DNA from: Gonapodya prolifera JEL478
Taxonomy: Eukaryota > Monoblepharomycota > Monoblepharidomycetes > Monoblepharidales > Gonapodyaceae
DNA length: 64,000 nucleotides
Assembly (NCBI GenBank): GCA_001574975.1
Contig: KQ965735.1
Location: 200,204 to 264,203, forward strand
Direction of reading: 5' to 3'
How positions within the stretch are numbered: position 1 is the first letter of the stretch; every line of letters starts with the position of its first letter. Positions 819-58,600 of this stretch are shown one piece after another. The position numbers were made by a program, and so were the translations under genes. Under the pieces are notes generated by a model. It was not told the DNA's origin, made no database searches, and saw only the letters and a list, made by a program, of their open reading frames with translations.

Positions 819-3800
819 ATGTCTGATGCTCACGCGCCCGCATCCCGACTTCGATCCGCGTCGCTGGGTCTCCTCCTCGTCGCAATCCTGGTATCGCCTT
901 CGAACCAAGCTTTGGCGGTCATGCCCAAAATCGCCGACTGCGGCTTTGCCGAAACAATGTTCTCAGCAGCGGGGCTCGATCCCCCGTGGACTGTGGGAAG
1001 CTGCTGCTTGGCTCCGTGGGCAACCTGCCAGAACATTTCCAACGTTTTGAGGGTCATTAGCATGGACTTGACAGGGACCGACTTCATGGGAACGCTTATT
1101 CCTGCTGGCGTCGCCAACGCAGCAGAGCTCCAGACCCTCACGCTACCGCGCTGTAACCTTTCGGGGGTCGTTCCACCGCTTCCGGGCGGGCTGCTCGTGC
1201 TGAACCTCTCCAACAACAGACTCGCTGGATCTGTCACCTTTGTCCAAACTCTACCAAACCTCACTTCACTGGATATCAGCTCTAATGCATTCACCGGTTC
1301 CGTTCCAAAAGTAACAACCACCAAACTCTTGACGGTCAATCTGTCCTCAAATCAGCTGGAGGGATACCTACCCATTTCTTCGCTCATCGGATCATCCCCT
1401 TCGTATCTGCAGACACTCGATGTTTCCAACAACCCACTATTGTCCGGTTCGGTTAATGATATCCATACTTCAAAATCTGTCACCCTTCTCACGACAATCA
1501 ACATTGCAAACACTTCCATCGGGGGCATGTTTCCCGACTCGCTGAGCCTTACGCCGTTCTTACGAAACCTACGCATCTCAAACACGTTGATATCTGGAAG
1601 CCTGCCCATCCTGCCCAATAGCACCCAAGTCTTTGAAGCCCGCAACTTGAATATGAACGGCTCCTTCGCCAACCTCCTCACTACAACGCAGCTACAAGCG
1701 GTCGATATCTCTGGGAACCAATTCAACGACGTCTTTGATCCAAGCACCAAACCGCTCGGGAACCTCAAGAACCTCGTTTCGCTCAACATCAGGTGGGGAA
1801 AACATTCGTCTTTTCGCGTCACGGACAGCAAGCTTGAATATAACTGTCCCTGCCCCTTATCCCTCACCAGCTCCAATCTGTTTAGCGGCAGGCTCAACAT
1901 CGCAAACTCCTCTGCACTTCGCACGTTCGACATGAGCAACAACAAACTCTCTGGCAACGTTGACGGGCTCCTGCCCGGGAACCTCACGCTGTGTTCGCTG
2001 GGTGGCAATGACCTGTACTCGTGTGCCACGCCCGTCCCAAAAATCTGCGGCTCGGTGCGTACGTACTGCCCTGCTCCCGTGAACGGCACCTGCACCGTGT
2101 CGCCATCGTCTGGAAACACTTCTACGGCGTTTTATATCAAGTGCGACGGCTGGTCGACCGAAGATTTGAATCCGCTGTTGTACGAGTACTCCTGGCAGTC
2201 CTTAGCTATGCGGACCAGCTTCCCGACGGTTGCAGCAAATCCACCGACTTTTGGGCCCTTTTCACTCCCCGTCGCTGGAAATCCTATCGTGCTTACCGTC
2301 AGAATCTCTCGCTCTGACGGCGGTCTCGCCATTGAATCGCAAATGAATGTGGTCGTCTCGTCGGTGACCATTGCTCCGGTCCTTGCCCCTACCCCAGCCC
2401 CGGCCCCGCCATCCCAGCAAAGCATCTCCAACAGCCTCGATGTGATCCGCGCTCTCGCGACCAATGTCACAAGCAATTTGGACCAAATTCTGCAGGGCGT
2501 CTCTTCTGTTGCTACCGATCTTGGCACCCTCCAGAACAACGCGTCGTCGTCAGTTCCCCCTGCGAGCGTGGACAATCTCAAGCTCAATGCTCTAGGACTG
2601 CTTTCGAATGCCATCTTGGATCAACAGAACGGTACAGACATCAACAACGCTCTCGTCGCGTCGAGCGCAGTTTTGCCCAAACTCATGCCCTCCACGTTCA
2701 ATGGATCTGCAATCGTCTCCTCTCTGTTGACGCTCTCCAAACTTGCCCAAGCAACGCACGGCAACGGCGGACTTGCGTCAGCTGGAGCTGCTGCGAACTT
2801 GCTCGAGTGCCTCGACAAAGTCTGGTCGATCACGGAGAACGTCACGGACTCCAACATGACTCTCGTTGCCAACAAAACACGCTTCGACGTCGTGGGGAGT
2901 AACGTGTCCTTTGCGCTGCTCGGTGCGATCCAGAACCTTGCCAAAGCTGTGGCAGATGGCAACCAGGAAGGGAACACGACCAAGGTCAATTCATCCTTAT
3001 TTTACATCACAGCGCACAAGGTGTACCAGAGACAAGTTCCCGCATCGCTAGAATCCGGTGATGGGGCTGTCGTGGCGAACTTAGATGCATCCTTACCTCA
3101 AATTCTCAATGGAGGACAGACCACAAACTCGTCCGGTTATCAATTACATCTCATCAGCATGAGAAAGAATCCTTTCGATAACTCTGTTGGTGCCTCGCTT
3201 AGGTAGGAGTTGGAGGCTGAATACCAAAGATGTTTTTCGCTGACTCACGTCGATGGTCCATAAGCAATTTCTCTCAGGCACTTTACTTTGGTGTGACTCA
3301 GGACTCACAGGATGTCGCGGTGGAGAACTTGACGAATTGTATTGTCATGTCAATACCGCTTCTTCAAGGAGGTAAGTTCATCCCCCGGTATAGGTATGCA
3401 CTCACGGATTGGTGATGACATATCTTGCTTTATTGCACCAGGTCGAAGAGATCGCTACCCGACATGCCTTTTCTGGAACATAACGGCAGGAAATTGGAGC
3501 GCCGGTGGAATTCAAACACAGAATTCGACAACCATCAATCCATACGCTTGCTGTACGAGTCATCTTTCTCTGTTCACGTGAGTCATCCCAAACGAGCATA
3601 CCTGAGCCAGAAAACTAAGGCACCGAAAACAGAGTCGACTTTGGAAGTTTCGACGGACTCCAGCTTACCGTCAACAATCCATTTAAAGACGTCGGTATCG
3701 TTGGGGAGCAGATTAAAAACAATCCTACCATTCTTGGTGTCCTTGCCGCTATTGGTAAGTGGGTGCAATAAACGCTGCTCATCCAAGGGAGGTTTATATT

Positions 3801-5357
3801 TGTGTTCAGTCCTTCTCTACATTGTTCTTGCCGTGAAATTCAGGCGGGATGATGCTGCAGAACTCCGAGGGGTTCGTTGGGATATCCATGGTTCGCGTTG
3901 TACCCAAGGAACTTCCGCGCCTCAAATCTCAAGCTAATACCTCATCCTTTCTGATAGAAGAAAACAATTGTGCCATTTTCCAGGTCGCTATGACAACGAG
4001 TAATGCTTGCAACATAAGTCCATCTCATGTACTGCGCATGTCATTTGCCGGCGAGAAAGGAGAAAACTCTGGCATTCTTCAACTGCCAACAAGCTATCTT
4101 GGTCGGCAACTGTTCTCCAGTGGACGCACGGTGGTGTTTTACGTCGAAGCACCGCTCCTGAGACTGAGGTCCATTCGGTTGGCACTTGACGATCGCTCGG
4201 GAGTTCAATCGCCTGAACCTCCAACGTGGGCACTCTCCAAATTGACAGTGCGATGTTACCAAACAATGGAAGAGTGGACTTTTGATGAAACGGATATCAG
4301 CAAAGAAAGCAAGCCTGGATCAATGGAACTTGCTGTAATGGAGAAGTGCGATTTGCTGCTTGATGAATTGGCAACTCAGCGTAACGTTCTTCTGATTTTA
4401 GGAAGGTGCTACTCCAGACATTTGGGCTGAGGGTCCTCAAATACTTTGACATAGATTTTCGGGACGGTCACTTATGGGCTGCCACAATTTTTGATGCAAG
4501 ACCTCTAGGTATGTTGCGTTGGTGGACTGAAAGGTGGTGGGAAAACGCTTTTCAAGCGTTATTTCGACGACATGTACTTCGACAGGTTCACACTATACCC
4601 GAGTCCAGAGACTGACTGTATGCTTCATGGTTCTCCTGCACAACATGTCAATCCTCGCCGTTTTTGTGAGTGCAAAAGATTTCTTTTCCAAATCCAACGT
4701 AATCAAACACACGAAACAGTACAATAACACCGGTTCAACAAGTCTTCTGCATAAAATTGTTACGGGATTGATCTCATCTGCAATCGTCCTTCCCTTTTCA
4801 CTTCTGGTGGAGCAACTGTTCAGGAGAGTGCGATACATCCGCATCGGGAAACATGGAGACAAATCTGTGCGACGAGCGTCTGAACTTGATGCTCAGGCAT
4901 TACGAGAGCGATGGCTTCTTCCGTACGAGTTTCTCTACGTCGCGTATGCCTTGGCTTTTGCCAGTGCTGGTCTCTCCCTTTACATCGCACTCGTCATCGG
5001 ACTGAGGCTAGACAACGCGGTGTCTGAGCCGGTACGTCATCAGTCGCTCTCGTGCAATTGAGTTCAATGATTCCCCAACCGTTGATTCCTTATTTTTAAC
5101 AGTGGCTAATCTCCTTCGTGGTTAGCTTCGTGGAGTCACTCTTCTTTTCACAACCACTCAAAATCGCAACATTTGCGACGGTTCGGGCAGCAGTTTCTGT
5201 GGCAACCATCAAAGCTCCTGACCAGGAACTTATGATCTCAGAAAAGGATGGCAATACCAGTAGAGTGCATGACAGCGATATGAGCATTGTCAAGTCAACA
5301 GCAACAAAAAGTCCGTTGCAGGAGTCACCATCATCTGCGTATTTAATTCGACAATAA
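819..5357 (+). CDS. polycystin-1-like receptor (LRR, REJ-like, GPS, PLAT, five TM)
   Basis: Ten exons join in frame to 1310 residues: 819-1792, 1871-3202, 3265-3371, 3442-3577, 3633-3754, 3810-3890, 3958-4334, 4406-4508, 4586-5031, 5103-5357. In order: a signal peptide (1-33), degenerate leucine-rich repeats (about 75-395), an REJ-like segment with CDGWSTEDLNPLLYEYSW, a Ser/Ala/Asn-rich stalk expected to be a GAIN-like fold, and a GPS motif (about 808-849) with CLFWN, NWS, a CC pair and SHLSLF, so an HL/S autocleavage site is present. Next come TM1 followed by FRRDDAAEL, a PLAT/LH2 domain (about 918-1040), DFRDGHLW and TRVQRL, then TM2-TM5 ending in the family signature SQPLK. Metazoan polycystin-1 proteins share this order and act as ciliary receptors partnered with TRPP channels. 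The six TRP-like C-terminal helices are missing; a polar tail closes the protein. The donor at 4335 and the GTTCGC donor at 3891 are the least certain borders. Confidence 0.85.
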
Positions 5358-5465
5358 CTTGTGATGCAACAAATCAAAAAAATTATTGCAAAGGACAATG
5401 GAACAAATTTTAAACTGTCGCCGTGAAGTCAGTCTATTATGCCGTTCTAAAGAGAGAGAAGAGCT

Positions 5466-6297
5466 TTAAATAAGCGCATGGAATATTGCAATTTCACATA
5501 TTGCTCCAAACAACCCCAGTATGAGACCCTCTACAATGTTACGACCCCACCTGATGACCGTGAACAAATGACATCATTATTCGATGCACCGCAGGTATTT
5601 GAAGCAATATTCACTCACCTATCATCCGTCCCCACCATCACCCCCCACTCGATTGTCACAATCACTGCGACAATCAAAACCATGAAAAGAACTTGGACAA
5701 TTTCTCCATCAAGACCAATTGCTTCCAAGAATGCAATCAGAATGAGTGGTAGAGGATTACTGTTCCAAACATGTACCAGGCTTCGTTGGCCTTGGCAAGA
5801 GCGCCCAGGCGACGTGACCAATGCCTCGGTCTTCCACGACCTGGCTCAACCACTTCAAAGCTGTCCTCTGACGTCGTGAATCCTCCATGTGCCCGCGTTG
5901 AGACGTCCTTAAGTTTATCGTTTCCGGGATTAGTCGATCAAGCTGAAGCAGAGCGGACTCGTAACCTTACTCTCAGTTCCAGGCCTCGGCGTAGTTGGCA
6001 AAGTTCCGACCCAAATTTTGTAACGAGACCAGTCAGCATGAGGACAACAACTGCCACATCAATCCAACTCACCCCTATCCGCTTTCTGAGGATCCAGAGT
6101 CTCCTTCTGATGACAAAGATGTAAAAAAACAGCAGTGCTGTGTAGAGAATGGATGTTGATGAGCGGAAAAACGGATTATGGCTCGATGTCGTCGGTGATG
6201 TCGGTCGTACCCAATTCTGGTTCCGACGAGGCATCTCCGTTGCTCCATGGGAGGCCGCGCCATGGACAACTGATTTGGAGGAAGATAGGCTCCGCAT
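5466..6297 (-). CDS. unidentified five-helix membrane protein (copy A)
   Basis: Four exons join with matching phases (6297-5971, 5907-5819, 5759-5619, 5550-5466) to give 213 residues, convergent with the polycystin-like gene and only about 110 bp from its stop. Five hydrophobic segments are visible: around ALLFFYIFVIRRRLWI, SWIDVAVVVLMLTGLV, PLILIAFLEAIGL, VLFMVLIVAVIVTIEWGV and LILGLFGAICEIAIF. The first pair recalls, weakly, the S2-S3 part of polycystin/TRP channels, but I cannot assign a family. Introns are 59-68 nt, two with excellent GTAAGG and GTGAGT donors. More 5' exons may exist upstream of 6297. Helices three and four resemble those of the gene at 7867-8785, so the two may be tandem relatives. 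Confidence 0.5.
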
Positions 6298-7866
6298 AAT
6301 TCGGAAATCTTTTCAGAATGGTGTTGACTTTTTTGATCGCTTTTTGCCGCGAACAAGTCTGTGACGTCAGAATAACCACCCGAACATCGCAAAAAAGCTC
6401 CCCCTTCACATGTAATCTACTCTTCGCAACTATTGGAAAATTTGGAAAGATCAAGAATGTACTTTGACTTATCGCTGATACACAGGGATTACATGGCTCT
6501 CCCAACGAAAACAATTTCTGTGTACTGAGACGCACCCTCAACCGCTGTTTGATTGAAGATTTTCCAGAATTTAGTCGCTCAGACCCATCCCTCGAACTTC
6601 AGCGGCAATTGAAAAGTAACGTTTGTCTGATGTAACTCACTCCTGTTTTACGTCAATAGTTTCAGAGCATCACAAGATGATCATCAAGTAGACTCCGAGT
6701 ATTGTACTGTCGAATGCAGTCTCCGGTGCATGTTCCCGCGACCCCAATTTACTGTCCAAACGGTCAAGAAAGATGCATCACGCAGCGCCGTTCATTGGGG
6801 AGCAGTTTAACAACATCCAAACTTTGATGGCTGTCGTAACACCCTGCGGCCAATAATCTCTTGCATTGTTCAGTACCACTTTATCGAGTATTGATGATTT
6901 CATACTTGAAAACAGTTGAAGTTCCTGGACGTTTATTGTCTGTTCTTGATGCATTTGAAAGACGCGTAGTGAGAGATGGAACCTGTAAAAACCAAGCTGA
7001 AGAACGCCGTCAGCTGGGGAACAACACCAAAGACGGCGGACACAGCGGCCCCACTCCCAAACCCAATGCGACGCAGTTCTTGAACGTGCGAGAAGTCGCC
7101 ACCATGCATCGCTTCCAGCATCTCGCCCCGCCAAAGGCGGTTCGTTGCACATGTGGGTACGTTGACCCGACTGCTGCAAAGGTCCAGCCCAAACGCCCCA
7201 GAGCTGCGCAACACTCGTCAGTGGGGAGCAGCCCAACAACATCCAATCTTTCAGGCTGTCATAATCACCGTGTGGCCAGCCGTCTCAGCTGTGTGGGCCT
7301 CACCTTGCTCCAAATTTTGGCTTTGGCACCAAAGAAGTGTGCAGTTGACCCAGGATGGATTGTTGTGTGTTTTTCAAGGGCATGCAGCCGCCCATCTTGA
7401 AGACAATGCCATTGAGGCGAGCCCGGTTGAATGTCACGCACGCCGAAGAACTGGAGGAGACGAGCTGCGACGCAGAGAGAACAATGTATGAATGCCACGG
7501 GTCTCGCTTGCAGAGAGAGGGAGAATGTGTTGGAGTTTTTGGTAGTTCACCCGAACATTACTTCATTTCTTTCTCTTCTTTCTAGAATGAAAACATGAAC
7601 AAAGAAGTAAAGCAATGAAATTTCAATGTATTATTCTGGCACTCTTATCACAATTTCAAACCCCCTGGCTTGTTCCCTATCCCTAGACTCCAATCAGCAA
7701 TTTCTTTAGTGTAACCATCACAATAGAACGCAGTTACGACCACCAACGTAACAATGATTATCGCATACCCGACGCGCCGGCCCGGCCTAAATGATCACGA
7801 TTAGTTGAATTTTGAACAAGGCAGAAGAGGCACTCACTATCACCCCTTTAAACCATAATGCCAGAT
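6298..7866. other. non-coding or decayed stretch between two membrane-protein genes
   Basis: No gene here can be built with confidence. The stretch contains relics of the polycystin-like gene (listed separately) and, at about 7648-7790 on the minus strand, a sequence after a good TTTAG acceptor that reads RPGRRVGYAIIIVTLVVVTA and on to a stop. That last part looks like a terminal transmembrane exon equivalent to the last exon of copy A, but the upstream gene cannot be joined to it without meeting stops. Confidence 0.45.
6777..7270 (+). repeat. degenerate duplicated fragments of polycystin-like exon 4
   Basis: Exon 4 of the polycystin-like gene has TTGGGGAGCAGATTAAAAAC at 3701-3720. A near copy starts at about 6794 (TTGGGGAGCAGTTTAACAAC) and another at about 7220 (GTGGGGAGCAGCCCAACAAC). 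The two later copies match each other for roughly 50 bp, through CATCCAA, CTTT and GGCTGTC. A weaker fourth match lies near 7015-7045. The copies carry stops or frame changes relative to the parent and look like relics of local duplication. The match is seen by eye over about 50 bp; longer homology was not established. Confidence 0.45.
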
Positions 7867-8785
7867 TCAATGGAAACGACAAGGCCAGACAACAGGGCCA
7901 AGATTTAGGACATGAATAAATTGATAATCGATGCCGTAGATTTCCAAGAAAGCGAGTAATTGGACAGGGATGATCGTGACAATAGCGAGAAGGAACAATG
8001 CCTCATAAACTTTCGCTAACATGTTGAGGTGGCGTTGCCGGTTGGAACTATTCCCTGAGCGTGGCACAGCCCGTGTACTGTGAGAAGGGCCAGAGGGTGC
8101 TGTGAATGGTAGATTTGTTGAGACAGTTGCTGGAGCACTCTCCCGTGACCTCCTCCCCTCGTTCAAAACCGGCGTGATACCATCCTTGGGGCGATACACA
8201 GGACTTCTGTGAGAAATGCCTGGCGTCGAAAAGGTGATCTTCGCTTCTGGCTGGTAGAACAAGGATGGCGGCGCCTTCTCGCCACTGACTTGAGCTCCTT
8301 TCTGGAAATGTAATGGTCAGTCATAATACCACACTCACACTTGGTGACACATACCTAAGCTCTTCCACGGCCTTCTTCCTGACTCCATTGTTTCCGCTGC
8401 TCTCGGCTACAGCGTTTTCATCAATTCCCTTTGTTGGTTCATCTTCTGAAACAACTTGCCCTGCCCCGTGGGTGTGGTGGTGGATTATATGAAGCTCTCG
8501 AACGTTTTCTTTGTCGCTGCTCTCATAGTAGAAGCTGGCATGTAAGGGGGTGGTGACGTTTGGAGGCATCGCGAACCCTCACTCGCCGCTATCAGTTTCC
8601 CCAGCCACGGCGTTGGCACGATTGTTGTGATGCTGATTGAAACCAAGAACAGAGGTGACAGCGCTCAAAAGTCTCCGATACTGCGGGATATTGCCAGATG
8701 AAGTCCGCTCCATTTTACTGCACGACACATTCAGACGAACCAAGGAAGCTGCCGCGACGTGAATGCTCTGTGATGTTTCCATCAT
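7867..8785 (-). CDS. unidentified membrane protein (copy B), possibly a pseudogene
   Basis: Starting from the ATG at 8785, a helical exon (MMETSQSIHVAAASLVRLN onward) ends near 8582 at a GTGAGG donor. It joins in frame, after a CCAG acceptor, to DFYYESSDKENVRELHIIHH and a charged linker. A second intron, with less certain borders, leads to a Ser/Pro-rich exon and a hydrophobic C-terminus (YEALFLLAIVTIIPVQLLAF, then LEIYGIDYQF), with a stop at 7867. This helix resembles the LILIAFLEAIGLDGE helix of copy A. Past the stop, another frame carries LVVSIESGIMV, matching copy A's IVTIEWGVMV, and then a stop. So either this gene ends early or it is a frameshifted relative of copy A. It lies about 110 bp downstream of INTS2 on the same strand. 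Function unknown. Confidence 0.35.
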
Positions 8786-8895
8786 AGCTTGCGCGGAGCC
8801 GTTGATCGTGTGCCTAGTAGTTTGCGAGCGAATTGTATATTCCCTTTGGTCACATTTTTCCCCAAGCACGTGACATCACCGTAACCATCACAACA

Positions 8896-11800
8896 TTACG
8901 AACCAGCGCTCTCCTTTTGAAATATAGATAGATACTCTTCTTCAATACTCGGGAAAATCAACGCGAGATCATGAGCTATTTGAAGAAGGTCGAGTGTGAA
9001 CTCCGGCTTTTTGTCTAACCAAACAATTCTCTTTTGAGTGCCAACAACCAGCATCGAAACAATTATTGACGTACCCAAAAGCTGCTCAATCTTTTGAAGA
9101 TACGACTTTGCTGCCGCCAAGCTGTCCAGGACAAGTTAGTGCAACGTATTTTCCTGGGGAATATCGCACACCCACCTGACAGGCGAAGGGTAGCGTCGAC
9201 AAAGGCCGACAAACAGTGCGAATCCGAAAATTTGACGTCTCGAGTCTTCTGAGTTTAGAAGCGAAGGAATGAAATCGAATGCCAGGACTGGACGAGATGT
9301 GTTCAGAAGCAAACAACCGCTTTCGACAGTGCGGAACTTACAAAAGGAATCAACGCCTTCCACTACAGATGGAATCACATTTACGGGGAATCCTTGAGCG
9401 ACAACGCTTTCGATGAGGGTGCGATCCGCCAAGAAGCGTTGATGGATAAACCGACAAATATTTGAACGAAGGTCGATCTCTTCCGAAACATGTGTTCTCA
9501 GTTTGTCCAAATCCACAACGCCACGATCCCAACGTACGATCTTCGAGTTGTTCCAAATGGTCGAGGAGTCGTTGAATAATGAGCAGTTCCTGTCCTTGAA
9601 GTGCTAATCGCATATGCACGGAAGAAACTCCAGCGTTTTGCTATCAAGAAAGGCATTGCTTCACAATCGAAAGCTCGCGGCAAAAAGGGTTCAAAACAGA
9701 CCAGTCGTGCATCGCGTAAACGAGTTCCGTATTTGCAATTTGCAGAACGCAAGAGTCCACTGAGGATCTGTGACGGCATGTGATTTCGTGTGAAAGAACC
9801 CTCAACGCAGCGCTTCGCGCTCACATAAAGCATCACATCCAGAGGAACGGGTTGGGTCAAACCCCTCTCATCACAATTCAACAGATAAGGCGGATCCAAC
9901 AATATCTGCTGCATCGAGGACCTGGACCAAGGTGCGCGAGCAGGGTGTCCCGGTATTATTAAAAGCCGTTTCGATGTAAAAAGTCTCCTCACGGTCTCCC
10001 TCCTCTTGTGAAGAATGTCCGCACCGTGCTCAACCAGAAGTTGGCCGGGGAAACCTCCGCGATCCTGTACCACGTGCTGCGAATAATGTCCGCGACTTCC
10101 GGAGGTAAGCTGAGATTTTGAAGTAATTTCTTTGGTTATGTTTGGAAAATGGATCAGAATACCACGATCGGCGAACTACAAACTTTTGGGATATCGCGAG
10201 AGGGAACACGTTCTGAAGGAAGGTGTCGGCGGAGTTCAAGCAAGCGTCTTTATCAAACGCTAGCAACCGCGATGCACCTGTAAAAATGTCCATTTAATGG
10301 TACTGCGTGTGACAATACTTCAAGAAAGTGATTCAACTCACTCGAGGCGGCTTTCTCGACGTTCGAGGACGCCACGTCACAGAGCACTTCGACCACCTGC
10401 AACGGCGCTTGACGCAGTGTCGCCCGTTCGTGGCTAGAACCAAGGTACTACCGTGAGCGTCCTTTCGTCGAACATAAGCCTGAACACCTGTTTCAGCAAC
10501 TCACATTGGCAGGATCTCCACCCCGGTCGGTTCAATCAGGTACGGATAATTCCCAGCAATGAGTGACGTGACTTCTGGCAGCACCACGGTAGACAACGTC
10601 GGATCGCGCAGGTTCTGAGCTCGGTCCAGGATCTGTTTCACGGGGAGCGAGGCCAGAAAGTCGTCCGAGTACTCTAGTGATGACATCTGTTCAGCTACGT
10701 AAACCCGTGCACCCCACCATCTTAGCGGACACCTCACCTTCGGGTTCGTCACCTGCCCGCAGACCCGACTGTCCACGGGAGCGATACAGCTCCGCGTTGA
10801 ACAGAAGCACAAAGTAGAGCGAGAGCACGCGCGAGCACGCGTTCGGTCCCTGAATCATATCCAACAGCGTCCGTTCATCCAACTTGGTGTGGGCTCGATG
10901 GGTGGGAAGAGCGAGGGAGCTGCGGGGTAACTCCACCACGGGTCAGTCATCGCGGAGGAAAGCCCTGGGCGCATTCGTAGGCACCTTGAAATGTAGTTCT
11001 TGACCAGGTACGGAAACGTCGCGTCGACGCGGACAGACGCAGTGCTCATGTGGGCAACGAGAAAGCGGCCCAAGGTGCCCAACTCGACCGTGAACGCGGC
11101 GGACTTTGAAATGAGAAGTTCGTCTAGTATGCGGAATGGGACTCCCGAGAGGGGCTAGGTTGGGGGCGTCAAAGCCGAGTGAGGTTGTCAGTGGTGGGTG
11201 AAGGAGCAACCCCAGCGTGCATGATCCACAACGAACTCACATTCTTGCGCGGATCGTCCGGCTCAACCTTGAGCGCCATCTGGCCCAACCGCACTTCGCT
11301 GAGCGCCGGTGCCATCCAGTTCTTGAGCCTCGTCAACCTGTTCTGGTCTGCCACCCCCATGTCGTCTCACCATTCCACCCTGCACAACAACATCACCCGA
11401 CACACTCACTCAGCGCAACGCCAAACCCCGCTGCTTCGGCCACCATTCCCTCCAGCGGCGCGAACGTGCCCAGGAAAAGGTTCACGAGTATGGCGAGCGT
11501 CGTCACGGGGGTGTGCGTGCGGGGAACGAGCTTGGCAAGCACGTCTGCCGGGGAGACCTGTTTCTGCTGCGTGGGTGGCGAAGTGGGGGATGCTCAGAGC
11601 GACCCGACCCGACTTTCCCTCACAAGTGCACGCGTCCCACGCTCCCACGCTCCCACGCTCACGCTGATGCTCACCTCCTTCCCCCCCACGAGCGCATCAG
11701 GCGCCACAAGGACGACACACAGCGCCAGCACGCGCACGGCATCGAACGCCGCGTGCTGTAAGCCGCGGTGCGCGACGGCGTCGAGGATCTTGGCGAGCTC

Positions 11801-14640: not shown

Positions 14641-17600
14641 TCACACAAACACCCTCTGATACCTCTCCGCATCCACACTCCCACTCCGCATCAACTTCCC
14701 CACCGGCTCAAACATCAAATCCAGCACCGCCACCTCCACAACCCCGCCGTCCACACTCGCCCCTCCCAACACAATATTAACCGCGCCATTCCCGGCCCGC
14801 TTGGCATTCACGTCTGGCCCGCTCGTCACGTCGCTCTCCTCCCCCACGAGGCGCCCGAGCCCCGTCATCATCTTGACCTCCTCCTTGGTCATCTCCACAC
14901 TGCACCACCCGCGCCCGTACTCGCCGCGCCACAGCCCGACGCCCGGGATCCCGGCCCGGTCGGCGAGGACTTTGAACAGCAGCGCGCGGTGGTAGAAGGT
15001 GCCCTTCTGCACGTCACCGAGGTGCACGACGTTGGACCCGCGCGAAAGTTTCAGCTCGGCGATCTTGAACTTGTAGTCAACGTCATCTGCGGCGGTTACG
15101 TCCACGAGACCGCCCATCGCCGCGCACACGAGCGCCGCGACCTTCATTATCGATTGCAGGCGTGGCGTGGTCAGCTTAGCTCCCCTGCTGCCGCTGGACG
15201 GCCGGCTGGGTGCCGGCACGCCTTGATCCCGAGACGGAAGCTGTGGCAACCCGCCTTGATCGTGCTCCACCGCAGCGGCGGCGACAATGGCCTTGGCCTC
15301 ACCGACGAGCGTCGCCAGCTGCGCATCCTTGGCGGCGTCCACGAGCAAAACTTCTCGGAACTTGTCGGCCGGTCGTGCGCGAAGCTCGTCCAGGGTGGGA
15401 AACGAGCGGCCGAGGGCGGGGTTCGGCCCGGCAGACCCGGCGTCGTAAAAGCCGTCTTGGATAATGTTGGACGGTGTTAGGTGATCGCGTAGCCAGAACT
15501 TGGCCGATAAGTCTGTCGCATCGAGTGTCAGCGGTTTGTCTCCCAGCTACAACCGTGCCCCCCGCTTCACACTGCACTCACGAAAATTCAACAGCTTCTC
15601 CAACGCGTCCACCGCAAACTTGGCGTTCTTGGACGACGTTGACAGAACCAGCAGGGCTTCCAGCGCCCCGTGCTTACACGCCTCCATCGCGATGGCACCT
15701 ACAATGTGCGTCACAATACATCCAGGCGTCAACCCACTCCCCAGGCGCTCCACTCACCGTCACCAGCGGAGTTCGAGAGCGCCCACGCGGCGTTGCGACA
15801 CACTGTCATGTCGGGGGAGCGGAGCAGGTGGACCAGTCTGGGAATGCCGCCTGACGACACCAGGGCGATTCGGGCGTCGACTTGGCACACAGAAGCAGGG
15901 GGGAAAAGTGGTTTTTTTAGTGAGGTTTTAGCTTGGGCCTTTCCTGCCCCCCCCCCCNCCCCCCCCCCCCCCCCCCCCCCAACCGAACCGACCAGTAACG
16001 CAACGTACCGTCTTGCACAGTCCTTGCCAGCGCCCACGCCGCTGTAGCGGCCACACTCGGCTCCGCGTGGTCTAAAATGCGACACAGAGCAGATATTCCC
16101 CCTTGCTTTGTGATCTCCCCGCGTATTGATGCTGAGCGAGGGCAGGTTAGTAACGACGACTTCCACAAACACATCCCTTTACGGTTCCCTGCACAGCTCA
16201 CCGTCCTCCGCGAGGTTGTTGATGCACTGAGCGGCGCTGATAAGCGTGGCGTTGTCGTTGGTGTTAAGGAGGCCCACAATCGCCGGAATGCCATCCATCT
16301 GCCGCACCTTGCTGCGGACTTTGGCTATCGACGTCGACCGAACAACCATCAGAGAGTTCCATCGCGTGCTCAACAGGAAGACCCAGCTTACCACTGCCAC
16401 ACATCCCACCGAGACCCGACACGGCCGCACGTGCTGCGGCTTCACCTCGTGCGAGAAGACCCACCAGGGACTCGACCGCGCCGTACTTGAGCAGTTCCGC
16501 GAGGTTGAGATCGTTTCTGGCCGCGGCCGCCACGCACACGGCGGCGCCGGCGGAGATGTCCGGGTCTTGGTGATTCAGCGCCGCAGACAAGAGGTTCAAA
16601 TTGGTCGGGGGTTCTCGAAAGTGGTCCAGATTGCGGTCTGGCTTGCGCGGGGCATCATCGTCATTTAGAAAACGCGGTGGTGGCGAGAGTGAAACTGGAC
16701 AGAGGCGGAACCCCACCTATTCGCGCCACCTTCCCAAGGGCGACGAGGGCGTTGCGCTTGATCCGCGCGTCCTCAGATGCCACGTGTTTGAAGATCGCGG
16801 CGATGCCGTTCACGTCGGCAATCATGCCGTTTACCTCGGCTAGAACCCATGTCAGTTGAGTGTGTGTCCGGTGTACGGGGATAGCGTGGTCTCACTGTCA
16901 TCCAAGCAGTTGGAAAGACACTGAAGTGTCATAGCGTGGAGTTCCGGCAAGCTTGCATTCAAGAGGTCAACCAATTTCTTTGTCCCGTTGGATTTTCTAA
17001 ATTCTACCCGATTGGCGACTGGGGCGGAGAAAACCTTCGAGGATGCAGGAAAGATGTGCAACCAAAAGAGGTAGCTCACAATCTTCCACACATCTGGTTA
17101 AGCTCAACAAAGCATTCTCTTGAATCTCTTTGTAATCCGATGTCAGCAGATCAATGAGCTTCGAAACCCCGCCAGCCAATCGAACGTCCGTCCGTGCATT
17201 GTCTGCGAGCAATCATGAATGACCTTCAAGCGATCGAGCGAGCAGTACCCACAATCTTCTAGGCTGATCGCAACCGCCCACGCTGCGTTCTTCTTGACGT
17301 CCGGGTCAGAAGAGTCAAGGAGCCGAACGAGAGACTTCAGGCCCCCCGCTTTCCGGATATCCGCCTTGATAGAAACTAATGTGATGGCGATCAAGCCACG
17401 GTATCCATGCAATCGTTTCGGGAGGTCTCACAGTCTTTCGATAGGTTTGCCAAGGCGAATGCAGCTTCCTCCTGAACTTCCACGACTTCATCGGGCGATA
17501 GGAGGTGAATCAACATTTCCATGAGCTCAGGCTTTCGCAGCTCCGGAAATTCATCGATGTCGTCTGTAATGCCAAACTGTCGGAGTGCTCCAAGCGGCAC

Positions 17601-27781: not shown

Positions 27782-30139
27782 ATGTCCCTCTCAGTTCGGG
27801 TCAATCCATCCGACATCCAATGGGGACGAAAGCTGGGACAGGGCACATTCTCAATCGTATTCGAGGGTCTTTATCGTGGAGAGAGAGTTGCTATCAAGCA
27901 GGTCCATGGTGCTAATGTGGACGATGCCTTGAAGGAAGCGGCGATTCTCTTGATCTTCTCTCACAAATATGTTTTGCGAATGGTCGGAGTTATCGCGGAG
28001 GGAAGCCTCTTCGGAATCGTCACCGAGTTCTGTGATGGTGGCACTCTCTTTGACTATCTCCACGATCCATCCAAACCAGTTCCACCATTGTTGTGAGTGT
28101 TTCCAAATGACCGGCGAGCTTATCAACAGCACCACAAAGGAGGTGCAAGGCGCCGAGGAAGGAAAATCAAGTTCAATAATTGGGAGGAACTCAGTGGCAT
28201 CGTCAAAGCGGTCTCCAGGTCTATTCTGCTTTGTTGTCCAACTACTAACTCTAACCCCACACGTGTTCGTCAGGCGCTGGAAGTGGACGTACCAGTTTGC
28301 CTGTGGAATGCAATTCTTGCATGACAAGAACATTCAGCATCGTGATCTTAAATCTCATAATCTGCTGCTGGACGCTAGCGGAACACTAAAAATAGCCGAT
28401 GTCGGCTTAGCTAAGGTATTGGTGATATTCATGATTCAGGCGAACCACCTGAATGTTGTTCATCCCCATTCTGTGCCAGTTTCGCTCCGAGTTCGCTACC
28501 ATTGGACAGGTCGGAACTCCACTATGGATGGCTCCAGAACTCCGAAACGGATCACCCTTCACACACAAGTGTGACGTCTACTCATTTGGCGTCATTCTCT
28601 GGGAAATAGCAACGCGCGCGATTCCGCCAATGCCTCCAGTAGCTCCCCTAGTTCTTCAACCTCAGGATGACTATGCGGCGCTCGTACTAGCGTGTACTGA
28701 TCCCGATCCCGCGCGTCGGCCAACATTTACCCAAATCGTTGAGCGCGTTGGGAATGCAATGGCCGACTTTGGGAGGAGGTGTGTTGGACAAGGAGAGATA
28801 GTCAATGCAGTGAGATGGTGGCAGCCAGCCGCAGGAGATGGGAATACGGTCACATTGGGCCTTCTCAAGGCTCTTGAAAGTGACGTCCATGTAAAGATCT
28901 CAAGGGGGACGGGTAATGCAGATGTGTCCATTATCACGAAGCAAGACCCTTCCTTCCCACTGGAGTCGCTACCGCCATTACCTAATCCCATGACAAATGC
29001 AGCACAGTCGAATTCTTCACCACGCAGCTCAAATGTAAATAACCTTCCACTCTTGGCTCAAGCAGCATCTTACCATTTCAACTTATTTCTGGCTTATCGC
29101 TTTGGACTCGCGTCTCATGTGTCATCCGAAGCTTCTGCGCTTGACAATCTTTGGAAAGCAGGGCGGCTCGGATCTGCGCTTGCCACGTTTGAACTCGCCG
29201 AACAATATCGCCGGGGATCTCAAGTTCCAGGTTTTGGGCGAGACTTCTCTCGGGCGTTTGAGCTGTACCGTCGTGCTGCAGGTGCAGGTCATCCTGGAGC
29301 GCAGTCGAACTTCCTTGCTCTTAGAAAAGTTGCCGCTCAAGTGGGGCAACGTTCGTCAACATCAGCCTCACCACTGGTGACGGACCCTCGTGGACTAGTA
29401 AGCAAGGATGCGGAACAACCTTTGCGTCAAAAAAGCGCATTTCTTCCAGGAGGCATAACTCAGAACGCGGAAGTTGTTCCCAATCGATCACAAGACCAGA
29501 TTCAATCTGTCGGCAACCCAGGGGCTGCCATCGCCAACCAACGACTACCCCCTTTACCGTCTGGAGGATATAAAGGTTCGAATACAAGTGTATCACAAGT
29601 GAGCATCCGTGATCTCCCGGAAGAAAATAATAGGTAGGCTGTCTAAGAAGATCCGTTTCAGTATCGAGTCTGCAGATCAACTTCGTAGCTTTGTTAGTCC
29701 CCGGGGCTCTTCTACAAAAGAAAAACCTGGTACTGGTGGTATTCTCGTATCGGGCGCGCACGCCTTATCCCCTTCGCGAGCAATGAAAGCACCTTCCCAG
29801 ACGATACAGGCACGAAATGTTGTGGATATTCCCTCTTTGGCGCCAGGCGACAGCCAACGTCGAATGCAACAACCTGCATCGATGGTATCTTCAGAACGAG
29901 GAGAAAAAACCCCAGTTCCAGTCGCACTTTCCGAGGCAGAGGTGGAGTCCTTCTTTTCTGAAATGGAGGACAATATTCCAAGTCCAACGGAAGGACATCT
30001 CAATTCCTCATTCGGGGCCGATGCTGTTCTTCAAGAACTTTTGGACCTAGTAGGGCCAACAGGAGCTCCGCTCCCCATCAGTGGTCGGGGTGCACCAAGT
30101 TCGGGGTCGACAGTGGCAAGACCCATGAAACATGTTTAA
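27782..30139 (+). CDS. TKL-type protein kinase with C-terminal Sel1-like repeat region
   Basis: The ATG at 27782 leads directly into a kinase domain: [20 protein letters not shown] is the glycine loop with the VAIK lysine, followed by catalytic loop [12 protein letters not shown], activation-segment start KIADVGLAK and [13 protein letters not shown]. Exon 1 ends near 28095, a roughly 180-nt intron follows, and the catalytic exons resume at about 28275. The WMAPE motif and overall pattern suggest a tyrosine-kinase-like (MLK/Raf-like) Ser/Thr kinase. The usual DFG reads DVG; the magnesium-binding Asp is kept. Downstream is a long region with a Sel1-like unit ([20 protein letters not shown]) and a disordered Ser/Pro/Gln-rich tail. 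The tail after 29633 depends on a proposed 28-nt intron; without it the protein stops at 29637. Substrates are unknown. Confidence 0.8.
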
Positions 30140-52614: not shown

Positions 52615-55600
52615 ATGGACGCGGGCAGTGGCTTGGATGCGGCACCCGTCTCAGAAAACAATCCATCAGCCACACCCGAGGAAGGGTTTGACGACGCCCT
52701 GTGGCAGTTCCTGACATCGTTTCCTCAGGAGATCATCACGGCACCCAGAATCCTTCGAGCGAGAACTCAGCCGCAGGAAAACTCTGCCACGGTGCTGCCT
52801 CTGTCTCCAGAATCACGGCAGAGGGTGTTTTTGCGCCTGGACAGCGCGCTTTGCGGTGGATGCGAATCAGACCAGGACCGTACTGCTCTCCTCGGTGAGG
52901 GCGATGGAAGCAAGACAGCAGACAGCAGGAAGGGAAAGAGTCCCCGTGAAAGTGATGGGGGAAGCAGGGGAGGGAGCAAAAAGATCAGACGCAATTCGCC
53001 ACCTCCAAACATGCAATCGGCAGTCCTCCCCGAACCCTCGTCCGCGGACGCCGGGAACACTGAGGCTGATAACGATGATATGTGGGTCGACGATGACGAC
53101 GACGAGACTGAGTCGGACTCGGAGCAAGATCAAGCGTCCGATGACGAGGACATTGTTGGGGCCGAGTACTCAAGCGCGCATCGCGGCAAAGTTTGCGGGT
53201 ACGTAGGGAGGCGAGGCTGTCCGGCGGAGGTAGATGATCCTTGCGCGAAGCGCGAATGATGGGAGAGTCATGATTCGTGGAGACATAAACCATTCGAAAA
53301 CATTCCACGTCTGGCATCCCTCATCTTACTCCAATTACCCATTGCTAAAATCTTTCGTCTCATCATAGCCACGTCTTCCGCAAGGGCGAGGCCATCTACC
53401 GGTGCCGGACCTGCTCGCTCGACGAAACGTGCGTCCTTTGCCTTGCCTGTTTCCGCTCCACCCACCCATCATTCGACCCCGCGACCGCATCGCACGAGTA
53501 CAACTTCTCCATCTCGCGGGGCGGCGGTGGATATTGCGACTGCGGCGACCCGGAAGCGTGGCGAGTCCCTCTTGCATGCCAGTATCATTCCCCTACCGCA
53601 CCGGGCTCGGGCTCTTCGTCCGACGCGGACCCCCAGAACGCCCAACTTCCCGAAAGAGGCGCGATTCCGCCGCACATCCTGTCCGCCATTCGATCCACAA
53701 TGTCCACAACGCTCGACTTCATCCTTCTCAGCTTCCTCGCCGCCCCCGCCCACCCGCCTGCACCGCCACGCAGCGCCGACGCCGTCGCTGCCGCGCTTGC
53801 TCGTGCGCGGGAGCGGCCCGTTTGGCTGGCTGCCGGAGGGTCGCCCCGAGCCGATGAGGATGGAGAGCAGAAAGAGGAAGTGGCCCTGGTTCTCTGGAAC
53901 GACGAGGAGCACAGTTTCGATGTGGTCATTGACGCGATCAGAAGGGCGCTCGGAGTGGATGCGGCGAGAGCGCGCGATCTTACGGTGGAAGTTGACAAAG
54001 TGGTGAGCCCTCATGTGTGCCTATTGAGAAACTTTTCGCGCTCGTCCGCTCACCACCATCCCGACCGTTACTCCAGGGACGATCCATCCTTCTTCACTCC
54101 TCTCGCCCCAACGTCGTCTACACCTCCTCCCGACCTCTCACTCGCGTCCGCCTCACCGTCACCGCCCATCCGCTCCGCCTCGTCATCCTCGAGGAGGTTG
54201 GCGCCCTTTGCCTGACATGGCTTCTCCGTACCGTCAATCGGGCGGCCAAAGGACCTTGGGGCGCAGAGCTTCGCACGGCGCTGTGCGAGGCGCTGCTCAA
54301 GCACGGGAGGCGGACGGTGGTGGAAGGGATGCCGCATGAGGTGCAGGAGTGGGCAGGGGAGGTCGGATGGGAAGGACTGGACGGAACCGCCCAAGAGAGC
54401 CAGGCAGCTGGCTCGTCGGCGAGTGGGCCAGGATCCTCGGGTGTCCCGGCGGAATATTCTCTGCAGGCCGTAGACACCGACATCGTGCCCTTGGAGCCGC
54501 CCCGCGCCGTACCGCTTGTGGCGGACCCGAATGAAGCAGCGTGGGCAATGGACGACGTGGTGGAAATTGAGGACGACGATAACTCGGAGGTCTCAGAGGA
54601 CGACAATGACAATGCCGTCGTTGAGGTCGACATGGATGTCGATGGGGAAGGGGAGGATATGTTTTCCTCGGACGGAGAAAACCCGGCTGGAATGATGCAA
54701 GGTCTAACGCAGGCTATGCAGGAGCTGGTTGCAAACGCGATAGCGACAAATCTTCTGAACCGTGGTGCCTTGGGAGGTCAGGTTAACAACGCTGCCGACG
54801 GTGGAGGTTTGGCGCTGGGAAATGCTCAACAGAATAATGGTGGTGCTCAGGCTAATACAGTAGTGACGGTTCTCCCCGGAACTGCTGCGGGCAATGTGAC
54901 CGCCGAAGGTCCGCTCACAGCAGATGAGAATATCATGTTCCGTCCCGACGGTGCGAGGCCCCAACTTCGAGATCCATCGGAAGCCGCGGTCGATGGAACT
55001 GTGGGTGCTGCAACCGGGAACGTTGGGGCGGATGCGCATCCCAACCCAGCGAACGGACCGACAAACCCGACTGCGGACCCCGCATTGGTGGCTCAGCTCA
55101 TGGAACAAATTCAGCAAATCCTTGCAGGGCAACCTTCGGTCATTGAAGTGAACGAACGAGGTGAAGAGGTGGAGGTATTCACCGGGGGCATGGGTGTCGC
55201 CGTCGGCCCCAACGGCCAATTGGAAATGCAAGTGCTCCCTGCCCCTCAAGCCACTGCGATGCTTCAACAAGGAGTGGAGGATGCGCTTCTGCAGACTGCA
55301 ACTGCTCAGGAACAAGCTGAGGTGGACGAACCTAACGCAGCGGCTGCAGTAGCTACGGGTGGGACCGGTGGCTTTGTTCCTGCGATAGGACAGACACTTG
55401 CAGAGCGCTTTTTGGAGCAACTTGAAGGCCGTGATGGACGTGTGCAACCGCCTGCAGGCTGGAGCGGATTAGCTCAAGCGCAGAGTATCACTCCGCCGCC
55501 TGTACCACACAATCGCCCAATGGTGAGGCCTCGATTGGATTACTTCTTCAAAGTGGAACGGAACCTCCCGAAGAGTCTTCGAGACCTCTTGAGAGACTTG

Positions 55601-58600
55601 TTTATTCGAACTTTGATGATAGATGCGTGGTCAAAGAAAGACTTCGGTAAGCCGCCTATGTGCTATCCTGAAGTTCCAGCTATTAATGAAATCTTTGAAT
55701 AGGCTCTCGGTTTGCCAGCAACTACCTTCCGATTGCTCATTCTCACCTTTTCCTCGATCGGGAACCTGAGCATTCGATATTCCTGTTCTGTGTGCAACTT
55801 TTCACCGTTCCTTCGGTTGCTGAGCATCTCGTTTCCGACACGCGTGCGCTGTTCACCCTCACCAATGTCTTTAAAGCGTTCTACCTCAATGATGCGCTTC
55901 GTCAGGAACTTCCTCTTGATCCCGCCCGTGTTGCGACGTCATTCCAACTGGCGTTGACGCACCGTGCCCCGTGGTACCCGCCATTGCCCACGAAATCCAA
56001 TGTGATGAAATCAAAACGTACGAGTCATTTGTTTGCTGACTTGGAATACCTCTTGTCGGTGCCACCAGTCCGGAAAACTATCTTCCGACAGCGAGTTGAT
56101 GAATATTTTCCCTGGGTGCTTGACGCCCTGTGTGTATGGCAGGGGATGCACCCTCAAGCACGCAAGCTCGGCTCTCATGTTGATTACGAGGATCAGACCT
56201 GGGTGGATTCGTTCAGAGTTGCAATCTACGCGGGGAAGCTTGTTTGGGTGATTGGCGCGGCGGTAGCCCCGACGGGCGAGTACACTGTACCCTCGACGCT
56301 GCAAAATGATTACGAGCAGTGGAAAAAGGCGGTGAACATGACCATAGTTTGGTTGGATAAGTGGAGTCAGACTCAAGTCACAATGGACCCACTCGCTGGA
56401 GTTTGGGACCACATAATACCCACTTATGCCCAAATGGAAGCGTTTAGAATGCCGAACTTTACGATCGGGGGAGCTCTGGGCCAAGACAATCTCAAGTATA
56501 CCTCCAGCTATCACTATCCGGTCCATTGGCTCCTTGCAGAACTGCTCTCGGCATCCGCTTATTTTTTTAAAGACAGCATGACTTCAGGTGTCTCCCAAGC
56601 ACTTGCGCCTCCCTCGTGGACCGAGCTCCTACGTCTTCCTGAGGTGCCGTCTGCAGAAACCGAGACCCCCACTTGGGACGAGAGGTTGCATAGAATATTT
56701 GACTACACGATGAGAGTTCTGGTATTGTCAGGACAAGTGCGAGCCGGTTTGTGGGTTAGAAATGGCTGGTCTCTGATGGAACAAGATTCGAATTATCGCA
56801 GCCGAAATTTGCAAGAAGTGAGTCGTACCATCTTTTCAGGAAGAATTACCTGATGTGGGGCGATCATTTCCGCAGCTTGGCCGCGATCAAGATGTTTTTA
56901 TTCTTCAAACGTTCGCAGCGTGTCTTCCAGCATCCCGCTTCTTGGGATCACTTCTTCACCGTTACGGTCTGGCGGATTGGTTCGCTGGCAACCATAAAGC
57001 ATCTATCGGAGTGGAAATGGAGCCGCAACACCTCTCCACCATGGCTGAAGACATGCTGGAGTTGCTCATCGTCATTATCACCGAAAGAACAAAACTCGGC
57101 GGACAAAGTTGGGAGGAGCAAACTCGGAAGGAAATTGTTCACCAGTTGGCGCTTCACTGGAAAAAAGGTGGTGCAGGTGAGCGCTTCATGTTTGTTTTCC
57201 GCGTGTACCAAACAATGCACGTTTCTGCGGCAACTCTGTAGCACATTCCGAAATTTTGCGCACCATGTCTTCGAGGAACGAAGTGCTGGTGTACTCAATT
57301 TCTGCGAGCCGCGAAGATGTGATGCGGAATCAGGAGCGATACTTTGACCTGATTCTTGCGGAAGTCACAAACTTCAAGGAGCCCGAAGGCTCGAGGGAAG
57401 TTGGCCTATATGAGTTAAAGGAAGCATATTGGGGAGATGTTGACCCTTGGTTTTACAAGTATACGCGAAACCAAAGGCAAGAAGTGGAGGAAGTAAGTCT
57501 ACGTTACGCACAGCAGCACTTGTGGTGTTGAAGTTTCACGAATTGCATATCTATTTAGGCGCTGAAATCGCGACGCTCCAAGGAAACAAGTGACAGCGAT
57601 AGTACACTTGCTCGACTGCCTCGTCTTTTGGATTTACCAAGGGGAAGTTTGTATACCGGCATCTGCGACCTCGTACAATCAGAACTCTTCACTCAGATCC
57701 TGTATTTCTCTGTTTATAATGCAACCACCCGAATTCTTATGTCGGGTGTGAGAAGCAGGGTACCATCAGCGGAGTTCATTCTTGGCGCTGCCGGACATCT
57801 CTTGCTTATTGCTGTTGCAGAAGAGTCAGCAAAGAGTGTTCAATCGGAAAGCGTGGGAGCCAGAACGTCCTTTTTCGAATCGGCATTGACTCTCGTGTTC
57901 TCTGTTCCAGAGGAAGAGGGTGGTGCGAAGCGAACTCTTCTTGATCTACTGTTGGATGTTGTGGACCGAGGCGACCCAGCGAACTCTCAGAGTATCGATA
58001 CAACTCTGAAATCTGAAGTCCAGGAGATTCTCTCAACAGTTAAGGTTGCCCTAGAAGAATTTGGTCGCCTTGGCTCACCGAGCCTAAAGGCTAAACTTGA
58101 GCAATGGCGTAAGCACAAAGAAACTCGCTCTCAATTGGAAGATACCTTTGCAACACGGCATTCCGAAGAGAATGAGAAAAAAAAGGCGGCAGCCAAAGCA
58201 CGCCAAGCTGCAATCATGGCTCAGCTGAAGCAGCAGCAACAGAATTTCTCAAAGAAGTATGCTGATGATTTGGAACGTGTTGGAAATCCAAATGAGGATG
58301 ACGACGATGATGATGATATGGACACGTATGCTGACTCTAAGGCGGATGAACTGTCAGGAAAGACTTGGCACTTCCCCAGAGGGGATTGCATTGTCTGCCA
58401 GGTTGGGAAGCTTTGCAAACGTGAGACAAGCGTTGTCACTAATCCGATTTCCAACCTCTAGGAACCAGCAAACGAAGAAAGCAACATATATGGAATTCTA
58501 GGACTCATTCAAGTGTCATCTGCTGTTCGAACCCTTACCTGTGAGGATAAAACAACAGTAGCAACTCTCTTGGCTACACCGGATTCTCTAGATACGCCTG

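What the first reader, a model, noticed from the sequence alone, without database searches (positions are those of the whole stretch)
819..5357. Polycystin-1-like receptor in what appears to be a fungus
The ten-exon model reads through signal peptide, LRRs, an REJ-type CDGW block, a complete GPS with a cleavable HL/S site, TM1, a PLAT domain, the FRDGHLW and TRVQRL blocks and the SQPLK signature, all in the order of metazoan polycystin-1. This is seen in the sequence; polycystin-1 domain order is established knowledge. I know of polycystin-2-like channels in fungi, but a full LRR-REJ-GPS-PLAT polycystin-1 is not something I associate with them. With ARMC3 and SFI1 nearby in the same genome, a role at the zoospore flagellum is a reasonable inference.
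Basis: partly seen in the sequence, partly recalled or inferred. Interest (0 to 1): 0.92.

Follow-up and report, generated by a model that had tools for sequence, protein, structure and literature searches.

The report
Poreless polycystin-1-like receptor in zoosporic fungus
A fungus that appears to make swimming spores carries an intact gene for a relative of the human kidney-disease protein polycystin-1, but only its receptor half, without the ion-channel half, which bears on how this receptor family was put together.

Summary
The gene is real. A ten-exon model (819-5357, + strand, all GT-AG, 1315 aa) reads through without a break. It has a signal-like N-terminus, LRRs, a REJ domain (36.3 bits, cut-off 25), a GPS (27.9 bits, cut-off 22.5) with an HL/S site, TM1, a PLAT domain, and a TM2-TM5 block whose only PDB matches at E <= 1 are polycystin-1 (best 3.4e-9; reversed control 0 hits). 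Pfam does not see the PLAT, but the exon folded alone matches lipoxygenase, lipase and alpha-toxin PLAT domains (Z up to 11.3).

It is not a full polycystin-1. It ends 64 residues after SQPLK, in the TM5-TM6 linker, before the TRPP-like pore and TOP domain. I found no pore in the downstream frames tested and no polycystin (TOP) domain in the genome, though these searches can miss. The LRRs are plant-type; WSC, PKD repeats and C-type lectin gave no hit.

The host is a fungus with a flagellar gene. Best reading: a self-cleaving surface receptor made of polycystin-1's receptor module without its channel. Ancestral state or loss is open.

The parts
819..5357 (+). polycystin-1-like receptor gene, 10 exons, 1315 aa, stop at 5355-5357
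   Evidence: spliced open frame, all introns GT-AG, 55-78 nt
819..917 (+). N-terminal hydrophobic segment read as signal peptide (LGLLLVAILVSPSNQALAV); bounds approximate
   Evidence: hydropathy 1.83; no signal-peptide predictor was run
1044..1991 (+). leucine-rich repeats of plant-specific type, across intron 1793-1870; bounds approximate
   Evidence: Pfam LRR_4 9.7e-11; best PDB hits are plant LRR receptor kinases, FLS2 1.6e-34; 7 repeats fit a loose motif, 4 a strict one
2073..2372 (+). C-terminal part of a REJ domain (CDGW block)
   Evidence: PF02010 model positions 313-417 of 452: 36.3 bits, E 4.4e-8; 35.3 bits, E 6.5e-9; not reported in the longer scans
2400..3202 (+). presumed helical subdomain A of a GAIN domain
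   Evidence: AlphaFold2 on 2049-3200 gave eight helices after a beta stretch, but pLDDT 38.9, so weak
3459..3575 (+). GPS motif, exon 4
   Evidence: PF01825: 26.6 bits, 27.9 bits, cut-off 22.5; in the full protein 22.5 bits; resembles the aGPCR ADGRG3 GPS, E 0.012
3561..3569 (+). H845-L846/S847, predicted self-cleavage site
   Evidence: read from sequence; the HL/(T or S) rule is from PMC9672506 (passages)
3730..3841 (+). TM1 (residues 883-901), across intron 3755-3809
   Evidence: hydropathy 2.73
3958..4345 (+). PLAT domain, exon 7
   Evidence: AlphaFold2 single-sequence model, pLDDT 73.0, pTM 0.67; Foldseek best 7.8e-5; VIA-align Z up to 11.3 to lipoxygenase PLAT; Pfam PLAT not detected
4457..4477 (+). 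FRDGHLW block, aligned to FFDKHIW of polycystin-1
   Evidence: phmmer alignment, coordinates
4597..4614 (+). TRVQRL block, aligned to TRIQRA of polycystin-1
   Evidence: phmmer alignment, coordinates
4612..4668 (+). TM2
   Evidence: hydropathy 2.21, aligned to polycystin-1
4756..4812 (+). TM3
   Evidence: hydropathy 1.96, aligned to polycystin-1
4948..5004 (+). TM4
   Evidence: hydropathy 2.12, aligned to polycystin-1 in the weak second block
5103..5174 (+). TM5 with SQPLK (5148-5162)
   Evidence: aligned to WLLSSSASFLASFLGWEPLK of polycystin-1 in the weak second block; below the hydropathy threshold used
5175..5354 (+). C-terminal tail that ends where the TM5-TM6 linker of polycystin-1 would lie
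   Evidence: stop codon at 5355, tail sequence

Best explanation
The gene encodes a polycystin-1-family surface receptor reduced to, or never larger than, the receptor half: signal peptide, plant-type LRR ectodomain, REJ plus GAIN/GPS, TM1, cytosolic PLAT, TM2-TM5, short cytosolic tail. Shown: domain order, intact frame, sequence homology of TM2-TM5 to polycystin-1, PLAT fold, absence of the pore module from the gene model. Inferred: the GAIN domain cuts itself between L846 and S847; the LRR head stays on non-covalently; pulling or ligand binding frees the new N-terminus (SLFTVDFG...), which acts as a tethered agonist on the five-helix bundle; the PLAT domain anchors the inner face to membrane lipids or couples it to a G protein, a scaffold or a separate channel. 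Because it has no pore domain, it should not conduct ions by itself. My odds: identity about 0.88; self-cleavage about 0.65; tethered-agonist signalling about 0.4; action in the zoospore membrane about 0.4.
For: Spliced open frame. Polycystin-1 chains were the only PDB matches at E <= 1, 3 of 3 sequences (that they are human is recalled), with 0 for the reversed control. PLAT by fold: all 23 Foldseek matches at E <= 0.001 are lipoxygenases or lipases, and the top VIA-align rows are lipoxygenases, lipases and alpha-toxin. REJ and GPS reach their cut-offs. The TM2-TM3 loop, extracellular in polycystin-1 (recalled), carries an N-glycosylation sequon at 1129. On the + strand from 5358 to 8960 only 5 hydrophobic windows occur, 4 of them at 8387-8822 in short frames cut by stops without PKD_channel at E <= 10. 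No Polycystin_dom in the genome. Codon usage like the neighbours. Organism is a fungus with IFT57.
Against: The polycystin-1 match is remote and rests on one protein; no fungal or protist relative could be searched. REJ is not reported when longer segments are scanned. Pfam does not recognise the PLAT. The GAIN model is poor. No RNA evidence; two weak splice donors. No paralog in this genome and no measure of selection. The published stalk mechanism of polycystin-1 runs through the TOP domain (PMC9672506, passages), which this protein lacks. No test of cleavage, location or signalling.
Confidence: 0.72

Rival explanations
1. Full 11-TM polycystin-1 whose pore half is missed: further exons lie downstream or the contig is rearranged there.
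For: Nine hydrophobic windows lie on the opposite strand between 5.4 and 8.0 kb, and four on the same strand at 8387-8822. One opposite-strand stretch (ILYTALLFFYIFVIRRRLWILRKRIGVSWIDVAVVVLML) looks by eye a little like a TRPP S2-S3.
Against: No PKD_channel in the 6 minus-strand and 2 plus-strand downstream frames scanned at E <= 5 (best other match PTPS_related 0.034, below cut-off) or in the 4 short plus-strand frames at E <= 10. The same-strand windows at 8387-8822 lie in frames of 31-51 aa cut by stops. Exon 10 ends in a clean stop. The window's only N bases are at 11915 and 15958.
Confidence: 0.07
2. Decaying remnant: the gene lost its channel half recently and is on the way to a pseudogene.
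For: Truncation in the TM5-TM6 linker, divergent PLAT, weak donors at introns 6 and 7.
Against: 1315 codons over 10 exons with no stop or frameshift; 29 N-glycosylation sequons before TM1 and codon usage at least as close to the neighbours as their own leave-one-out values.
Confidence: 0.08
3. Contaminating metazoan, choanoflagellate or other protist DNA.
For: The family is best known from animals.
Against: 925,649-base contig; codon usage like six coding stretches of four neighbouring genes; LYS2-type and Chitin_synth_1N genes in the same assembly. The LRRs match plant receptor LRRs best.
Confidence: 0.02
4. Convergent assembly: an adhesion-GPCR-like or REJ/GPS protein that gained a PLAT independently.
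For: GPS resembles the aGPCR ADGRG3 GPS; a second REJ protein with a GPS-like end and one TM exists in the genome.
Against: Five TMs rather than seven, and collinear TM2-TM5 similarity to polycystin-1, blocks FRDGHLW, TRVQRL and PLK included.
Confidence: 0.05

Closest known systems
Polycystin-1 (PKD1), PDB 6a70/8z6f
   Same: TM2-TM5 with the same blocks by sequence; REJ, GPS and PLAT by family model or fold, in the polycystin-1 order (domain list in PMC9672506, passages)
   Different: no TOP domain and TM6-TM11 pore; no WSC, PKD repeats or C-type lectin hit; plant-type LRRs; 1315 aa against more than 4000 (recalled)
Ectocarpus Esi0130_0068 (PMC4700764, passages seen)
   Same: 1427 aa, long extracellular part with REJ and GPS, 6-7 TMs, outside animals
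   Different: brown alga, male-gamete expressed; the paper's domain scan reports a polycystin channel match, and the word PLAT does not occur in its main text
Adhesion GPCRs
   Same: GPS with HL/(T or S) before TM1
   Different: 7 TM and no PLAT (recalled); here TM1-PLAT-TM2-5
Plant LRR receptors (FLS2, PEPR1)
   Same: plant-specific LRR ectodomain
   Different: no kinase; a polycystin-1 module instead

Membership tests
Polycystin-1 family | GPS/GAIN before TM1 with HL/(S or T) | tested here: met
   PF01825 27.9 bits against cut-off 22.5; HLS at 845-847. Cleavage itself not tested; GAIN fold not resolved
Polycystin-1 family | REJ module | tested here: met
   36.3 bits against cut-off 25, but only positions 313-417 of 452; not reported in longer scans
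Polycystin-1 family | PLAT between TM1 and TM2 | tested here: met
   by fold, Z up to 11.3, rmsd 2.9, 111 residues aligned; Pfam PLAT model gave no match
Polycystin-1 family | TM2-TM5 with conserved blocks | tested here: met
   phmmer to polycystin-1 E 3.4e-9, reversed 0 hits; TM4-TM5 block weak by itself
Polycystin-1 family (11-TM form) | TOP domain and TM6-TM11 TRPP-like pore | tested here: not met
   stop 64 residues after SQPLK; no PKD_channel in the protein at E <= 1 or in 12 downstream frames scanned (8, 4); no Polycystin_dom in the genome (where no control rang either)
Polycystin-1 family | WSC, C-type lectin and PKD repeats in the ectodomain | tested here: not met
   no Pfam hit at E <= 1; these are variable within the family (recalled)
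Adhesion GPCR | 7-TM domain after the GPS | tested here: not met
   TM1, PLAT, then four TMs
Polycystin-1 family | partner TRPP/PC2 channel in the same genome | tested here: inconclusive
   PKD_channel gave 2 places: C1, 23.4 bits, just over the cut-off of 22.4, and C2, 18.4 bits, under it; from their translations I read both as voltage-gated-type channels, by eye; a miss does not show absence

The most novel reading that the evidence does not exclude
The fungal gene keeps the pre-fusion state: polycystin-1 arose when a stand-alone self-cleaving receptor (REJ-GAIN-TM1-PLAT-TM2-5) fused to a TRPP channel, and zoosporic fungi still carry the receptor as a separate, poreless signalling protein of the swimming spore. 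This would separate the receptor role of polycystin-1 from its channel role by natural experiment.
Probability: 0.18. Interest if true: 0.85.

Novelty: new variant of a known kind. Interest (0 to 1): 0.56.

Why it matters
How polycystin-1 works as a receptor beside its channel role is still argued (PMC9672506, passages). A natural polycystin-1 relative that has the cleavable ectodomain, PLAT and TM1-TM5 but no pore would show that the receptor half can be a working unit, and would put its origin at or before the opisthokont ancestor. It would also add an LRR/GAIN receptor type to the poorly known sensory kit of fungal zoospores.

Tried and rejected
Pfam PLAT in the genome, in the whole protein and in exon 7 alone: nothing (in one search no control rang either); rescued by fold. 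PKD_channel in the genome: two places, one just over the cut-off (23.4 against 22.4 bits) and one under (18.4). From their translations I read both as voltage-gated-type channels, by eye and not by a family test. Polycystin_dom: nothing, with the tool's warning that nothing rang in any control. Opposite-strand TM segments downstream as an inverted pore half: no PKD_channel. Same-strand hydrophobic windows at 8387-8822: no PKD_channel; best match PBP_sp32 at 0.018, below its cut-off. The downstream stretches 5358-6900 and 7300-9000 compared by blastn: no hit. Alternative splice acceptor at 3984 for intron 6: rejected because it removes the first PLAT strand. GAIN structure: pLDDT 38.9, not usable. 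PDB search with the UBR1 C-terminus to place the organism: 2 sequences, UBR2 and UBR1, not informative. Viral contigs: 9 pattern matches, none confirmed (one of its six patterns held my slip). The 50 rows shown by Foldseek and by VIA-align do not include polycystin-1's own PLAT; I did not follow this up. Literature: 10 searches listed no paper whose title or abstract start describes a polycystin-1-like protein in fungi. PMC6712302 links a gut-fungus Gal_Lectin domain to animal polycystin-1 (passages), a different matter. I saw passages only of PMC6712302, PMC12716839, PMC13197933, PMC7399828, PMC3251606, PMC9672506 and PMC4700764; the rest as listings. Subscription papers and sequence-database annotation were not searchable, so such proteins may already be annotated in public fungal proteomes.
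Full report
What was checked. The window is C5:200204-264203 of a 47.6-Mb, 207-contig assembly; C5 is 925,649 bases long. I rebuilt the gene by hand from the reading frames and tested it by script. Ten exons between 819 and 5357 give 1315 aa without a stop; all nine introns are GT-AG and 55-78 nt long.

Domains. Scanning the full protein gives LRR_4 (9.7e-11) and GPS (22.5 bits, exactly at cut-off), and no REJ, PLAT or PKD_channel at E <= 1. Scanning by exon changes this: REJ on 2013-3200 has 35.3 bits against a cut-off of 25 (E 6.5e-9), and GPS on exon 4 has 27.9 bits. The genome search finds the same REJ stretch with 36.3 bits and the GPS with 26.6 bits. REJ is not reported in a 534-aa spliced segment or in the 810-aa frame, probably through HMMER's filters (inference). 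I therefore call it present but fragile. It covers only positions 313-417 of 452 of the model, where the CDGW block lies.

PLAT. No Pfam PLAT match even at E <= 10 for exon 7 alone. The exon folded without an alignment gives a beta sandwich (pLDDT 73.0, pTM 0.67). Foldseek lists 23 matches at E <= 0.001, all lipoxygenases or lipases. VIA-align gives Z up to 11.3 (111 residues, rmsd 2.9) to a lipoxygenase; its 50 rows are lipoxygenases, lipases and alpha-toxin C-domains, the founders of the PLAT name, plus one RAB6-interacting protein. Polycystin-1's own PLAT is not among the rows shown.

Membrane part. The last 465 residues match only polycystin-1 in the PDB, as 3 of 3 distinct sequences at E <= 1 (best 3.4e-9). 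Two collinear blocks align: the PLAT end, FRDGHLW, TRVQRL and TM2-TM3, then TM4-TM5 with PLK; the second is weak by itself (i-Evalue 4). The reversed sequence matches nothing. TM1 and TM2-TM4 are clear by hydropathy; TM5 is placed by the alignment.

What is missing. The frame ends 64 residues after SQPLK, in what is the TM5-TM6 linker of polycystin-1. On the + strand from 5358 to 8960 there are 5 hydrophobic windows; 4 of them cluster at 8387-8822, but in frames of 31-51 aa cut by stops, without PKD_channel at E <= 10. Six minus-strand and two plus-strand frames of this stretch give no PKD_channel at E <= 5. In the genome, PKD_channel finds two places, one just over the cut-off, that I read by eye as voltage-gated-type channels, and Polycystin_dom finds none; the tool warns that misses do not show absence. 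So this protein has polycystin-1's receptor half only.

Ectodomain. The LRRs are plant-specific in type: the best PDB hits are FLS2 and other plant receptor kinases. Seven repeats fit a loose motif and 29 N-glycosylation sequons lie before TM1. WSC, PKD repeats and C-type lectin are absent from the Pfam scan at E <= 1. The GPS has three cysteines. Set against the ADGRG3 GPS, two of them sit on the usual four positions and the second and fourth positions are replaced, by eye. PMC9672506 (passages) gives 2-4 cysteines for this motif and HL/(T or S) as the cut site. That human polycystin-1's GPS also keeps only two is recalled.

Organism. The assembly has a LYS2-type aminoadipate reductase in exon pieces on C8 that together cover most of the model (best piece 454.5 bits; no single piece reaches the whole-protein cut-off; 12 of 14 prokaryote controls ring below the cut-off). 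It has Chitin_synth_1N in 6 matches on 5 contigs with 0 of 14 controls, and IFT57 over the cut-off on C16, with 5 of 14 controls ringing below it. The window itself holds an ARMC3/EDR1-type domain and UBR1, UTP6, DnaJ, USP and kinase-type domains. This fits a flagellate fungus; the species is not known to me. The gene's codon usage correlates 0.84 with six coding stretches of four neighbouring genes, whose own leave-one-out values are 0.55-0.72 (the smaller sets are noisier). Contamination is very unlikely.

Mechanism. Inferred: a self-cleaving LRR receptor whose freed stalk acts on a five-helix bundle with an inner PLAT. The tethered-agonist model for polycystin-1 is described in PMC9672506 (passages), where the stalk is thought to act through the TOP domain. 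This protein lacks TOP, so that route cannot apply as described; this counts against a simple transfer of the model.

Known relatives. Polycystin-1-like proteins outside animals exist: Ectocarpus Esi0130_0068 has REJ, GPS and 6-7 TMs (PMC4700764, passages). Chytrids have animal-like GPCR families (PMC3251606, passages). An eLife survey places the GAIN-7TM module in stem holozoans but the GAIN domain earlier (PMC12716839, passages), which fits a GAIN-type protein in a fungus. Ten literature searches listed nothing that describes polycystin-1 in fungi by title or abstract start; database annotations could not be searched.

Verdict. A real, intact, resident gene; a new variant of the polycystin-1 family, without the pore. 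Interest rests on the missing pore and on fungal presence, and is limited by having one sequence and no expression data.

Noticed in passing
L018 1528-5744 (C4, about 171,500-175,750): A second REJ protein in this genome (57 bits and 37.8 bits): 1201-codon frame, then a GPS-like CKTNHLTSF end and one TM in a further frame, so perhaps a REJ-GPS-1TM protein; its GPS was not tested by Pfam.
   Followed up: partly
window 5400-6200 and 7700-8100, minus strand: Two TM-rich opposite-strand stretches that look alike by eye in protein (LAKVYEAL...LLAFLEIYGID and LAKANEAW...LIAFLEAIGLD), the second broken by a frame change; possible tandem small membrane genes or pseudogenes, no Pfam match above cut-off.
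   Followed up: partly
window 14644-15546, minus strand: EDR1/CTR1/ARMC3 peptidase-like domain, 4.6e-25, consistent with a flagellar ARMC3.
   Followed up: no
window 28453-29634: Kinase domain end followed by Sel1-like repeats.
   Followed up: no
window 53349-60669: UBR1-type N-recognin over several frames (UBR box, ClpS-like, PRT6_C).
   Followed up: no
window 2013-3200: REJ scores 35 bits on this fragment but is not reported for longer queries holding the same residues: a warning for annotation pipelines.
   Followed up: partly
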